Positions 3,208 through 26,374 of a DNA stretch of 64,000 nt are shown here, one piece after another (position 1 is the stretch's first letter; every line of letters begins with the position of its first letter). The notes under the pieces are model-generated. The model had not been told where the DNA came from, searched no databases, and saw nothing but the letters and a program-made list of their open reading frames with translations. The DNA is from Hysterium pulicare CBS 123377 (lineage: Eukaryota > Ascomycota > Dothideomycetes > Hysteriales > Hysteriaceae): positions 1-64,000 of the forward strand of contig AJFK01000713.1 of the NCBI GenBank assembly GCA_000467715.1, in the 5' to 3' direction. Both the position numbers and the translations under genes were made by a program.

Positions 3208-6200
3208 TTATAGGTCTAGGGAAGAAAATATCCTCTTCAAATCCCGAAAGAGCATGATATACTCCGCCACCATACCATCAAGCCCTGCCTGTCTCGCCCT
3301 GTCCACCCACTCCTGCAACCCTAACTCCTCAATCCGCGTCACCATCTCCCTCTCCAGATGATCCCGGAACCCATCAACCGGCATAACGACTTCTCCTGAT
3401 TGATGTGCATACTTCACAGTAGCGCCTTCCGTTGACTCCCAGTGATCCTGTATTGCAGCCACGATACTCCCCAAGACCTGTTCGACAGAGCAAAAATCCA
3501 GGAATCCATGGACTTTTTCGAGGATGGGTGTCGCTTTGAGTAATCGAGAGTACTTGACGATGTTATTCGTGATGTCAAGCGGCGGGAAGTCGTCACCCGT
3601 GATATCTGAGGGCCTATGAATCCATAATGGTAAGTTGTACTCCTGGGATGCTTTCGCAAGGATCTTTTCGCTTGTCCATTTAGAAGCAAGGTATGCTTTT
3701 GATCCATCCCGGGGTGGCGTTTCGATGACAGAAGTCTCTCTAAATTTTTCCTTGTCTGTGAAACGAGCGACTCCGGCGGTGGAGATGTAGTGGAACGGAA
3801 GCCTACGTGGTAAAGCGAGTCGAATGAGATCCTTCGTAGACCCAACGTTAGCGGGCTTCAGACTCTGATATGATTTCAAGAATGATACGTCTGCTCCGTT
3901 GTGGATCACGACATCGGCCTCGTTAAAGACATGACTTGCAGCTGCTTCCGAGAGCCCCAGTAGTGGAAGAGTGAGATCGCCCCTGTGCATTTTGATCCTG
4001 CTGGAGCTCGGGAGGGCCTTCTGCTTTTCGGCCGAGCGTATTGCGATGTAGTGGATTCGATCAATTGTTTGGTTCTCCAGAAGCCGACCAACCATAGCTC
4101 TCCCGAGAAAGCCCGTGGCGCCTGTCATGACAACCACGCGTGCGCCCCTGGTAGCTTGTCGGATATCGGAAGATCCCTTACATGCCACTAAGATTATGGG
4201 CGCTATCGACGTTTCTTTCTCCCACTCAATGGCGACTCCCTGTTCTATGATGGGACAGGAACTTTTAATGTGGATTGCCATTTCCCCAAGGGTACTGGAT
4301 CCGAACAGCTTGATCAGAGGAACGAAGATACCCGTCTTGTTCGTGATCTTGGACTGGAGGGTGACGAGTAATAAAGAGCTACCACCGACGTGGAAGAAGT
4401 CCGTCCTCGATTCCAAATGAGCCTTCTTGGATGAGTCCTTGAACAGAATCTCCTCCCATAACTCCTTCATTTTGATTTCGGCAGGAGTCAGTGGGGGATC
4501 ATTCGTAGGGGCTTCGCGGCAAAGTCGACCGAGCTTTCAAACATTTTCCAAACATATCCTAAAGTATCAGATAGTGCTTTAACATCGCTCTTCCCACGAT
4601 TGAAGGTTCCGGTGTACGGAATAGAAATACCGAGAGCACTCTGGATGGTCTGGGAAGTAGGACCTTTTAGCGCTGGATGCGGCCCAACCTCGATAGCGAT
4701 ATCGAAACCCGTCTCGTGAAAAGCTTCTTCAATTTCTTGCGAGAACAAAACTGGTTCGATCATGTTATCATTCCAATGATCAGCTTCCAGGTGGTCCCTT
4801 GGGCGTTACCTTCCGGCCAAGGACACTAGAGAACCAAGCAACGGTCCTTTCTGGGGGATGTTTCATCTGGATGTTTGACGAGCGCAGAGACTTCAAGTAA
4901 GGATTCGAACTCCGAAGCATATGGTGAGAATGATACGCTTTATCGACCCTCAAAAGCCGCACAAACTTCTTTTGTTCAACAAGCATAGCCTTTACTTCGC
5001 GTATAGCATCCTCATTGCCCGATAAGGTGAAGCTGGAAGGGGAATTGCTTGCCGCCACAGAAACACGATCCTTGAGGTTTGAGACCCCCGTGAGCTCCTT
5101 CGCCTCCTGGAGTATAGTTCCCACTGCCAGCATGGCTCCTCTCTCACCGCTAGACCCAGAAGCTAGTTCTAGGTAGAAGTCTCGATAGTATGCAATTACA
5201 ATAGCATCTTCAATGTGTTCCAGATAGCCAGCGGCGTAAGCGGCTGCGATTTCGCCCGAGGAATGGCCCACAACAGCGTTGAATATAATCCCAGCAGTAC
5301 GTAAGAGCTCGACAATCAAGAGCTGAACTGCTGTGCATAGAGGCTGCGACAATGCGGCTTCATTAACACGTGACGTAGAAACATCGGCAATCAATTCGGT
5401 TGCAATTGAAAAGTGCGAACGGTCAGCCGGAGGAAGTTACTTCTTGGCTTGGCTGATATTGCTCGAGTATTGCGTGGGCATTCGCTCCGCCAAAACCAAG
5501 GCTGTTTACGCTGACCCTGCGAGGGCCACCATGAGTTTCTGGCCATGGCAATGCTTTTATCGGAATCTCAGGGCCGCCATAAAATGGAGCAACTGCGGGA
5601 TTGGGCTTTTGGAATAGGAGATTCGGTGGTACGACGCCATGCTGTAAAGCGAGAGACGCTTTCAAGATAACAGCGAGCCCGGCGGTACCCTCGGTGTGGC
5701 CGATGACGGTCTTGATAGACCCGTCGTAGAGAGTTTGGTGGTTATTCGCATCGGGATGGAAGAATGAAGTGCTGATGGCCTCCGCTTCGATCGGGTCGCC
5801 AGCAGCCATGCCAGTGCCATGAGCCTCGAAGTACTGAGGTCGATCGCTCGACTGAGTTAGATCCAGCCCGGCCTTGGCGCAAGTGCTCCGGATCAATTCA
5901 GCCTGGGCCTCGGACGATGGCATCGTGATCCCTTTCGTTCGACCATCTTGATTGATGCCTGTTTCGCGAATCACACATTCAATATCGTCTCTGTCAGCCA
6001 GTGCAGCATTTAATGTTTTTAATACCACTGCTGCCACGCCGTCACCTCTAGCATACCCGTTCGCATCGGCATCCCACATGCGGCATTTACTGTCAGGGGA
6101 CAACATCTTTAGCTTGCTCTCTGCCATGTAAGGCTCTGGTCCTAAGATGGGATTCGATCCTGCTGCTACTGCAACCCGAGATTCAACCGGCCCTTAGAGA

Positions 6201-6860
6201 CTGGACAGCTTGATGTACAGCAATCAGGCTGGACAAGCATGCCGTGTCAATGGTCATAGAGGGGCCGTGCCAGTCAAAGAAAGAGGAGATGCGGTTCGAC
6301 AGAACACTTCTCGCCGTTCTTGTTGGAACATATGTTGGGTATTGATTGGGGTCTCGGTTCACGACGTCGGCTTAGTCTCCAGTCATCACCCCAGCGTAGA
6401 CAGCCGTCTGGGATCCCTGAAGAGCGGAAATTAACAGTCCAGCGGATTCAACGGCTTCATATACCGTTTCAAGAAGAATTCGTTGCTGAGGGTCCGTAGA
6501 ATTTGCCTCAACTAGTTTAATTCCGAAGAATTGAGCATCGAAATACCGATGGTCTTCCGATAGGATATAACTCTTGCGGACGATGCTTGTTCCATGATGC
6601 TGGCCATCGGGATGATAAAAACTGGATGGATCGAATCGAGACTCGGGCGGGATTTGACTCTCTACTTGCCTCGCAGACTTCGGTGATTTGAAAAGATAGT
6701 GAACTTCTTGTGTGCACATTGGAACCATCACGAACCTTGGAAGTTGTTCATAATCCAGCCAGCACGAGACAACTTTAGTAACTACGGAGGTCTCGGCGTA
6801 CGGAGATACGGTGCGGGAAGGGGGTTCACATGCGTGAGCATATTGAGTACTAGATTGCAC
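3208..6860 (-). pseudogene. Broken PKS / NRPS-like core biosynthesis gene (fossil)
   Basis: A relic of a reducing PKS or PKS-NRPS hybrid, read on the minus strand. Parts in order: ketosynthase (about 5.4-6.9 kb, with the substrate-loading motif RFDPSSFYHPDG, DPQQRILLE, an active-site DTAC block, the EAHGTG region and the GFGGANAHAILE end), acyltransferase (about 4.5-5.4 kb, with the nucleophile motif GHSSGEIAAAYAAG), then a carrier protein (GGSSLL phosphopantetheine site) joined to a thioester-reductase Rossmann domain (TGATGFLGR) at 3.2-4.5 kb. Dehydratase, methyltransferase, enoyl- and ketoreductase, condensation and adenylation regions are not seen between acyltransferase and carrier. The gene is broken in several places (roughly four or more) and lacks most of its modules, so it cannot be a working synthase. 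The reductase end is still open. Domain identities are secure; the parent class (PKS-NRPS with reductive release) is inferred from the carrier-reductase linker type. Confidence 0.85.
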
Positions 6861-24836: not shown

Positions 24837-26374
24837 CTATATTTTAGCAGTCGGTTCTTCTGTAGAGAGTGCTCTTGCAAGACTTTTGTAAGCCGGAAAT
24901 CTATCTCTGGGATCCCACTTTTTGCGAATATCCAGGAATCGTCTTAAGGCAGAGTCCGTCATAACTTTCATCTTGGAAACAAAGTCAGCCTCTCCCATCA
25001 ATTCTCTTTTCAAAAATACTTACTTTGGATTGACGTTCATCATGTACGTCATAGTCGGCTACATACATGCCACATGCTACACTCTGAATACGGGCAAATC
25101 TTTCGCTCATCGGCTCGTAGATCTGAGGCTGAAGTGAGGAGTCTGTCCAACCTGTGAATGTGCTGATGTAGTATTGCTGGGGAATGCTAAAAGCGCATTC
25201 ATTTTCATCCGGATAAGTATCGCTGCAGTAGATGCAGCCAACGGAGGTTCGCGTAGGAAGATCACACATGACGGGTTTGATTGCACGAATAAGCTTCGCA
25301 AGGTCAGCGACTGGGAGAAACGATGTGGATACGGCTCTCGATAAGTGTTACCTCTGGTTCTGGAACTGCTGGATCATTTAAAATGCTATTGATTTGCCAT
25401 CGTTCACCATTCCCACCCGGCGTGAAAAGATCCTGCATCTCAAAGAATTGCCGTAGTGACGACTCTTTGGGTTCCTGAGCCTCTATCCAGCAGTCTCTCA
25501 GCTCATCTGGAATTTCAGTCCATACACTTAGCATAGCCCGTGCCTGCTCTAATGAATCCGCCCAAGCCGAGATATTGATCGAAAGGGACAGCTGGCTCGG
25601 ATCTTGGAACTTATCGTCTTTCGCTTCTGGATCGAACTTGTCCGGGTAGAAAGTAACGATGGCACTCTCAGTACCAAACTTCGGCATATCTCTGTTCTTG
25701 TCGAAAGCAAATTGTAGCATTTTCTCAAACTTACTCCCTACTTTGAACACGTACGACTGTTCGTATAATCCAGAGCGAGCAGGAATCGTGCGTCCCCATA
25801 TACGTGTCACGACGCCAAAGAACGCCTGTCCGCTCCCCCGCGCGGCCCAAAAGAGGTCGTCATTTTCCGAATGGCTTGTGATGACCGCTCTGCCATCGGG
25901 TACAACAATCTCCATGCGAGTGACCCAATTGGCGGCCGTTCCTCCCCATCCGCGCATGAACATGCCTTGACCCCCAGCGAGACAGAAGCCACCCATCGCA
26001 ACGGTTGGAGCATGGCCGTATGGAAAGAAGCGACCAATAGATTGAAGAGTATCCGAAACTGCTCTGACGCGTACCGCAGGACCAAAGTCAATTTCTTGCG
26101 TCGAGGCATCGTAGCTGACACGTCGATTGATGCGAGAGGTATCGATCAAGATGCTATCTTCGAGTAATGAGGGATTGGAGTAAAGATGACCTCCGGAACG
26201 AACGCCGATTGGGATGCCTAGGTCGTTTGCCGTCCGGACTGCGGCGACGACATCTTCTACGGACTGGACTAGATGTATTTCTCTGGGAAAGATTTCGCGT
26301 ACGTCGGCGTTGATATAAGCGCGTCGATAGCCTTCGTACTCGTCGTGTCCCCTGGTAAAGACGAGATCGGCCAT
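24837..26374 (-). CDS. BBE-like FAD-linked oxidoreductase
   Basis: Three exons (26374-25352, 25293-25024, 24971-24837), 475 aa. The PCMH-type FAD-binding domain shows IGVRSGGHLYSNPS, whose histidine is the normal covalent FAD anchor, and GHAPTVAMGGFCLAGGQG where bicovalent members usually read CPTVG; alanine replaces that cysteine, so FAD is probably held by the histidine alone. The C-terminal berberine-bridge part carries MYVADYDVHDERQSK and WDPRDRF. Intron 1 was ended at 25294 (CTGAC branch just before the AG) because only this acceptor keeps frame. No signal peptide is visible from this ATG, unlike many family members, so it may be cytosolic or have a missed upstream exon. Such oxidases commonly perform ring closures or dehydrogenations in fungal clusters. 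It marks the right edge of the apparent cluster. Confidence 0.87.

What the first reader, a model, noticed from the sequence alone, without database searches (positions are those of the whole stretch)
3208..26374. Metabolite cluster with a dead core but open tailoring genes
A broken PKS/NRPS-like core gene sits beside GMC oxidoreductase, two P450s, C2H2 regulator, membrane protein, FAD monooxygenase, SDR and BBE-like oxidase, all of which read open with consistent splice sites. Either loss of the core is recent, or the tailoring enzymes now serve another scaffold made elsewhere. Seen: the families and open frames. Known: such sets form fungal clusters. Inferred: shared pathway and its present use.
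Basis: partly seen in the sequence, partly recalled or inferred. Interest (0 to 1): 0.75.

Follow-up and report, generated by a model that had tools for sequence, protein, structure and literature searches.

The report
Fungal metabolite cluster with broken core
A fungal gene cluster for a natural product has lost most of the giant enzyme that starts the pathway while eight neighbouring genes still read open, a form of cluster decay that is already known in fungi.

Summary
The core at 3208-6884 (-) is the wreck of a PKS-NRPS hybrid synthetase. Its pieces match the solved hybrid PsoA (4007 aa) at its start (KS, acyltransferase) and end (carrier protein plus thioester reductase); about 28% of PsoA's length is represented. 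There is an in-frame stop, two frame changes and three deletion junctions. All eight neighbours (GMC oxidoreductase, two P450s, C2H2 regulator, membrane protein, FAD monooxygenase, SDR, BBE-like oxidase) splice into open frames. No RIP signature; no second core enzyme in the ORFs scanned. The surviving KS is no more divergent than working enzymes, and the lesions suggest about 0.5-1% neutral change since death: recent loss. If all genes had been unconstrained since then, finding every small lesion in the core has probability about 0.01-0.04; a hint of retained use, not proof. No relatives, own genome or expression data could be searched, so shared pathway, dN/dS and repurposing stay untested. 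Clusters with dead backbones are documented in Botrytis, Aspergillus and Fusarium. Verdict: real and mostly ordinary.

The parts
6375..6710 (-). core remnant, ketosynthase N-terminal piece (PsoA about 36-136); upstream start lost
   Evidence: PF00109; PDB match to PsoA and LovB
6186..6374 (-). in-frame TAA (6372-6374) followed by the ketosynthase piece with the active-site Cys (DTAC)
   Evidence: frames and sequence, motif; not searched on its own
5426..6193 (-). core remnant, ketosynthase C-terminal piece in a shifted frame (PsoA 202-448)
   Evidence: PF02801, PF16197; 63% identical to LovB
4783..5436 (-). core remnant, acyltransferase piece (PsoA 613-810); the 5' part of the domain is missing
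   Evidence: PF00698 from profile position 45
4491..4805 (-). core remnant, acyltransferase C-terminal piece in another frame (PsoA 824-919)
3208..4536 (-). core remnant, carrier protein plus thioester reductase, one open frame of 442 aa (PsoA 3571-3992)
   Evidence: PF00550, PF07993; PsoA match; TIGR01746 below its curated cut-off; motifs GGSS, TGATGFLG, YxxxK
7443..9361 (-). GMC oxidoreductase, 618 aa, 1 intron, open
11149..12995 (+). cytochrome P450 a, 524 aa, 4 introns, open
   Evidence: PF00067
13533..16630 (+). C2H2 zinc-finger regulator with Fungal_trans domain, 874 aa, 5 introns, open
   Evidence: PF04082; two C2H2 fingers
17242..19167 (+). membrane protein, 641 aa, no intron, no Pfam family
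   Evidence: 6 hydrophobic segments
19595..21202 (-). cytochrome P450 b, 496 aa, 2 introns, open
   Evidence: PF00067
21763..23160 (+). FAD monooxygenase, PnpA-like, 408 aa, 3 introns (first exon less sure), open
   Evidence: PF01494; best solved relative PnpA 6ain
23353..24478 (-). short-chain dehydrogenase, 294 aa, 4 introns, open
   Evidence: PF00106
24837..26374 (-). BBE-like FAD oxidase, 475 aa, 2 introns (both junctions without domain support), open
   Evidence: PF01565 at residues 35-166

Best explanation
This is a fungal natural-product gene cluster whose backbone enzyme, a PKS-NRPS hybrid synthetase, has been destroyed by large deletions plus a stop and two frame changes (shown). In its working state (inferred from the domains) the KS-AT part built a polyketide, the lost adenylation domain joined an amino acid to it, and the terminal reductase released the chain; the GMC oxidase, P450s, FAD monooxygenase, SDR and BBE-like oxidase would have decorated it under the C2H2 regulator. 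Now no chain can be made from this locus. The neighbours are still open mainly because the loss is recent, possibly helped by residual selection.
For: Of five core pieces searched against solved structures, PsoA, a PKS-NRPS, is the best match for four and the third best, after LovB and another PKS, for the KS C-terminal piece; all five are collinear along PsoA. No Pfam match in 10 chosen inter-gene ORFs. A crude six-frame motif scan hits EAHGTG and GHSxGE only in the remnant and no adenylation or condensation pattern anywhere. 8 of 8 neighbours open, with signature residues in the seven that have a known family. Lesion-based neutral distance 0.005-0.011 (95% limits over the three assumed indel ratios 0.001-0.031). 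The KS-C remnant deviates at 6 of 47 columns invariant in five yardsticks; in leave-one-out sets LovB deviates at 10 of 57 and the remnant at 10, PsoA 16 of 63 and the remnant 10, CurL 10 of 57 and the remnant 7. None of seven relative-rate comparisons of the remnant reaches 3.84; the largest is 2.95 and points to PsoA as the faster. No RIP: composite index -0.69 in the remnant, -0.55 to -0.82 in the eight neighbours.
Against: That all genes belong to one pathway is proximity only; no shared promoter motif stands out against real-DNA controls. GMC, FAD monooxygenase and SDR are broad families also found outside clusters (recalled). In two leave-one-out sets the remnant deviates more than the yardstick (8 against 5 of 52; 6 against 4 of 51), and some of its changes are at normally strict KS positions, such as M for T after HGTG and L for S after DTAC (usual residue recalled). 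The motif scan is insensitive: its DTAC and carrier patterns missed the remnant's own copies, and the carrier pattern hit only at 51680. The window starts only 3.2 kb left of the remnant, so a further core or cluster genes may lie outside it.
Confidence: 0.6

Rival explanations
1. The neighbours, or some of them, remain under selection and now act on a scaffold made elsewhere or in another route; the core alone was dropped.
For: All three small lesions fall in the core although the neighbours are about 80% of the target: P 0.007-0.009, or 0.038-0.042 if the first lesion is set aside as the killing one. At the core's point-estimate rate 11.6-12.4 lesions would be expected in the neighbours and 0 are seen.
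Against: Only three small lesions; the locus was picked because it looks like this, so the test is post hoc; my hand-made gene models favour open frames. Selection may have ended only a little after the core died. No expression, dN/dS or genome-wide data.
Confidence: 0.22
2. The PKS-NRPS wreck is an unrelated relic; the FAD monooxygenase, SDR and BBE-like genes (and perhaps others) form a separate route, for example on an aromatic substrate.
For: The FAD monooxygenase is closest to PnpA (278 bits) and then HspB (215 bits), with a steep fall to 87 bits after; these act on simple aromatics (recalled). GMC, FMO and SDR are common outside clusters (recalled).
Against: Two P450s, a regulator, a BBE-like oxidase and a PKS-NRPS wreck within 23 kb is the usual make-up of a fungal cluster (recalled); BBE-like oxidases do serve PKS-NRPS products (PMC8752850, passages read).
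Confidence: 0.14
3. The breaks are assembly or sequencing errors and the core is whole in the organism.
For: No reads are available to check; no call bears on it directly.
Against: About 72% of the expected protein length is missing in three separate gaps, plus a stop and two frame changes, while none was found in the 8 neighbouring gene models.
Confidence: 0.04

Closest known systems
Bikaverin cluster of Botrytis cinerea B05.10/T4 (PMC3538735, passages read)
   Same: backbone PKS lost while other cluster genes remain readable; regulators bik4 and bik5 of the dead cluster fully or partly complement Fusarium mutants
   Different: there two enzyme genes (bik2, bik3) are broken too and the PKS gene is absent; here the core is a wreck still in place and all eight neighbours are open
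Trypacidin cluster of Aspergillus fumigatus A1163 and other clusters of that species (PMC5711037, passages read)
   Same: a PKS core lost through a frameshift; 23 of 33 clusters there hold nonsense or frameshift variants in one or more genes in some strain
   Different: there polymorphic between strains, and not only in backbone genes; here several lesions and large deletions in the core, strain data unknown
Apicidin NRPS pseudogene of Fusarium asiaticum FasiR (PMC6836718, passages read)
   Same: a pseudogenized backbone left in place
   Different: there only flanking genes on one end remain; here a set of tailoring genes remains
PsoA (PKS-NRPS; PDB 9x29, 9x2c)
   Same: the five searched core pieces map to it in order
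   Different: KS-C is nearer LovB (63%) than PsoA (51%); the remnant lacks about 72% of its length

Membership tests
fungal PKS-NRPS hybrid synthetase (ancestral identity of the core) | KS and acyltransferase at the N-terminal end, NRPS-type carrier plus reductase/cyclase at the C-terminal end of one gene | tested here: met
fungal PKS-NRPS hybrid synthetase (ancestral identity of the core) | DH, MT, KR, ACP, C and A domains between (layout recalled) | tested here: not met
   the last acyltransferase piece and the carrier-reductase piece overlap at 4491-4536, leaving no room; none in 10 chosen inter-gene ORFs. Read as deletion: it is a remnant and not a working member
pseudogene | disabling lesions in a gene of known family | tested here: met
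   stop 6372-6374, two frame changes, three deletion junctions
pseudogene | lesions confirmed by reads or relatives | not testable with these tools
   no genome held; no relatives of the pieces tried in viral contigs or prokaryote genomes
natural-product cluster with dead backbone | open tailoring genes linked to a broken backbone gene | tested here: met
natural-product cluster with dead backbone | relatives with the same genes around an intact backbone | not testable with these tools
   no fungal genome collection offered
[quoted passage not shown]
   no partner enzyme suggested by the Pfam matches of the genes and ORFs scanned; the left edge of the window is only 3.2 kb away and not every ORF was scanned
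reductive-release PKS-NRPS (against Dieckmann/tetramate type) | TGxTGFLG nucleotide site and YxxxK in the terminal domain | tested here: met
   that loss of the Tyr marks the Dieckmann type is recalled, not read

The most novel reading that the evidence does not exclude
The eight genes, or the surviving carrier-reductase didomain with them, have been kept under selection for a new substrate after the core was shed, so that a tailoring set outlived its scaffold enzyme as a working unit.
Probability: 0.15. Interest if true: 0.55.

Novelty: new member of a known kind. Interest (0 to 1): 0.22.

Why it matters
It is a clear snapshot of how a fungal pathway can die: backbone first, regulator and decorating enzymes still whole. 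If relatives show the neighbours under purifying selection, it would be a case for enzymes reused after their pathway ended; if not, it helps to calibrate how fast clusters erode. By itself it is one more loss of a documented type.

Tried and rejected
RIP as the cause of the breaks: rejected; the composite index of the remnant (-0.69) lies within the range of the eight neighbours (-0.55 to -0.82). Another core enzyme in the window: none found by Pfam on selected ORFs (not all ORFs of 29.5-64 kb were scanned) nor by a six-frame motif scan, which is insensitive: two of its patterns missed the remnant's own copies. A lesion in P450 a near 11490-11771 was suspected from the ORF list and rejected: three ordinary introns explain it. 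Duplication or repeats at the locus: none of 30 bases or more in 1-32000 with exact seeds of 14. Shared promoter motif: plain words of 7 to 10 bases are no more shared than in shuffles; AGATn4GACT occurs in 5 of 7 cluster intergenic regions and 3 times elsewhere, and 0 of 30 shuffles reached 5, but 49 of 150 draws of real DNA from the same window gave some gapped word in 5 or more of 7, so it is not counted. Constraint on the carrier-reductase piece: it has none of the three small lesions, but the chance of that is about 0.25 (my arithmetic from lengths). Relatives: none for two core pieces in viral contigs nor for one in prokaryote genomes; the neighbours were not tried there. Codon score: five of six core pieces score within the neighbours' range or above it (0.031 to 0.127), the KS piece at 6186-6371 scores -0.001 and the membrane protein -0.012; this does not separate recent from old loss. 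Papers: searches (listings only, except the four papers whose passages I read).
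Full report
What was checked. The window is fungal in gene content (Fungal_trans and fungal rhodopsin domains, short introns); no whole genome is held for it.

The core. On the - strand between 6884 and 3208 lie pieces of one large gene in three frames. Pfam finds KS N- and C-terminal domains, the KS extension, an acyltransferase lacking its first 44 profile positions, a carrier protein and a reductase-type NAD-binding domain. A TAA stands at 6372-6374 between two KS pieces of the same frame; the frame changes near 6186-6193 and again within the acyltransferase near 4783-4805. 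Searched one by one against solved structures, five pieces match PsoA, a PKS-NRPS hybrid of 4007 residues, at 36-136, 202-448, 613-810, 824-919 and 3571-3992. PsoA is the best match for four of them; for the KS C-terminal piece LovB is closer (63% against 51% identity). With the KS piece at 6186-6371 placed by position and its DTAC motif, about 1130 of 4007 positions are represented, or 28% (my sum). Missing are about 1-35, 449-612 and 920-3570. In known hybrids the last stretch holds DH, methyltransferase, KR, ACP, condensation and adenylation domains (recalled). So this is a PKS-NRPS wreck, not just PKS/NRPS-like.

The neighbours. I built eight gene models by hand from frames and splice candidates. 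All eight run from ATG to stop without a break: GMC oxidoreductase 618 aa, P450 a 524, C2H2 regulator 874, membrane protein 641, P450 b 496, FAD monooxygenase 408, SDR 294, BBE-like oxidase 475; 21 introns, all GT-AG, 48-96 bases long apart from one of 262. Because introns were chosen to keep frames open, the stronger evidence is continuity across junctions: 14 of 21 are crossed by a Pfam match, one more by a solved-structure match (GMC) and one by a zinc finger. The other five are not: the first of the FAD monooxygenase, the last two of the regulator and both of the BBE-like gene. Signature residues are present: heme F..G.R.C.G and ExxR in both P450s, TGxxxGIG and YxxxK in the SDR, FAD motifs in the monooxygenase and GMC protein, the RSGGH motif in the BBE-like protein, two C2H2 fingers in the regulator (their meaning is recalled).

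How recent is the loss? First, drift: at 47 KS columns invariant in five divergent yardsticks the remnant differs at 6. In leave-one-out sets the yardstick and the remnant differ at 10 and 10 of 57 (LovB), 16 and 10 of 63 (PsoA), 10 and 7 of 57 (CurL), 5 and 8 of 52 and 4 and 6 of 51 (the two 7zma domains). Of seven relative-rate comparisons of the remnant none reaches 3.84; the largest is 2.95, with PsoA the faster. So the remnant has not measurably drifted beyond working enzymes, though a few changes sit at normally strict positions. Second, lesions: one stop and two small frame changes in 3563 bases of coding pieces give a neutral distance of 0.005-0.011 for assumed indel-to-substitution ratios of 0.15-0.05, with 95% limits from 0.001 to 0.031. 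Both point to a recent loss. Turning that into years would need a mutation rate for the species, which is unknown.

Are the neighbours still constrained? At the core's point-estimate rate 11.6-12.4 lesions would be expected in their 12,990 coding bases and 21 introns; none is seen. Taking the three lesions as given, the chance that all fall in the core is 0.007-0.009, or 0.038-0.042 if one is set aside as the killing event. This is modest evidence, post hoc, rests on three lesions, and cannot separate continued use from selection that ended only a little later.

Context. No RIP signature, no repeats of 30 bases or more in 1-32000, no tRNA found and no Rfam match at gathering score. The right flank carries a gene with a pro-kumamolisin (S53-type) domain and a fungal rhodopsin-domain protein; of ten further ORFs scanned four have Pfam matches, to EthD, CCCH zinc finger (below cut-off), 2OG-Fe dioxygenase and DUF1349. 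A crude six-frame motif scan hits EAHGTG and GHSxGE only in the remnant and no adenylation or condensation pattern; it is insensitive, since its DTAC and carrier patterns missed the remnant's own copies and the carrier pattern hit only at 51680. The left edge of the window is 3.2 kb from the wreck, with a GH78-like gene at 410-2611, so more of the cluster may lie outside. No promoter word shared by the cluster exceeds what real DNA of the same window gives.

What it works like and whether it belongs. The terminal domain keeps TGATGFLG and YxxxK, which points to reductive release (the link to release type is recalled). The cytochalasan four-gene cassette (PMC8752850, passages read) is not met within the ORFs scanned. 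The product cannot be named. Clusters whose backbone is dead while other genes survive are on record: bikaverin in Botrytis, with regulators still working (PMC3538735, passages read); a frameshifted trypacidin PKS in an Aspergillus fumigatus strain, a species where 23 of 33 clusters hold nonsense or frameshift variants in some gene of some strain (PMC5711037, passages read); a pseudogenized apicidin NRPS in Fusarium asiaticum (PMC6836718, passages read).

Verdict. The finding is real and correctly located; the core is a PKS-NRPS hybrid wreck of recent date; the neighbours are open. Whether they now serve another scaffold cannot be decided here. As it stands it is a good example of a known process.

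Noticed in passing
6916, 10991, 13303, 17068, 21299: The word AGATnnnnGACT occurs in 5 of 7 cluster intergenic regions and only 3 times in the other 58.8 kb; against real-DNA controls not significant.
   Followed up: partly
21763-23160: The FAD monooxygenase is far closer to PnpA and HspB (278 and 215 bits) than to any other solved relative (87 bits and less), yet its model has three introns.
   Followed up: no
3208-4536: The carrier-reductase end of the dead core is still one open frame of 442 aa with its signature motifs and a Met just before the carrier domain.
   Followed up: partly
38240-39007: An EthD-domain ORF carries a 9-base repeat (ACCGAGACG, about 12 copies at 38303-38409) coding for a Thr-Glu-Thr tract; another EthD-like ORF (by eye, not scanned) lies at 37418-37810.
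   Followed up: no
17242-19167: Intronless membrane protein of 641 aa with 6 hydrophobic segments and no Pfam match, inside the cluster.
   Followed up: no
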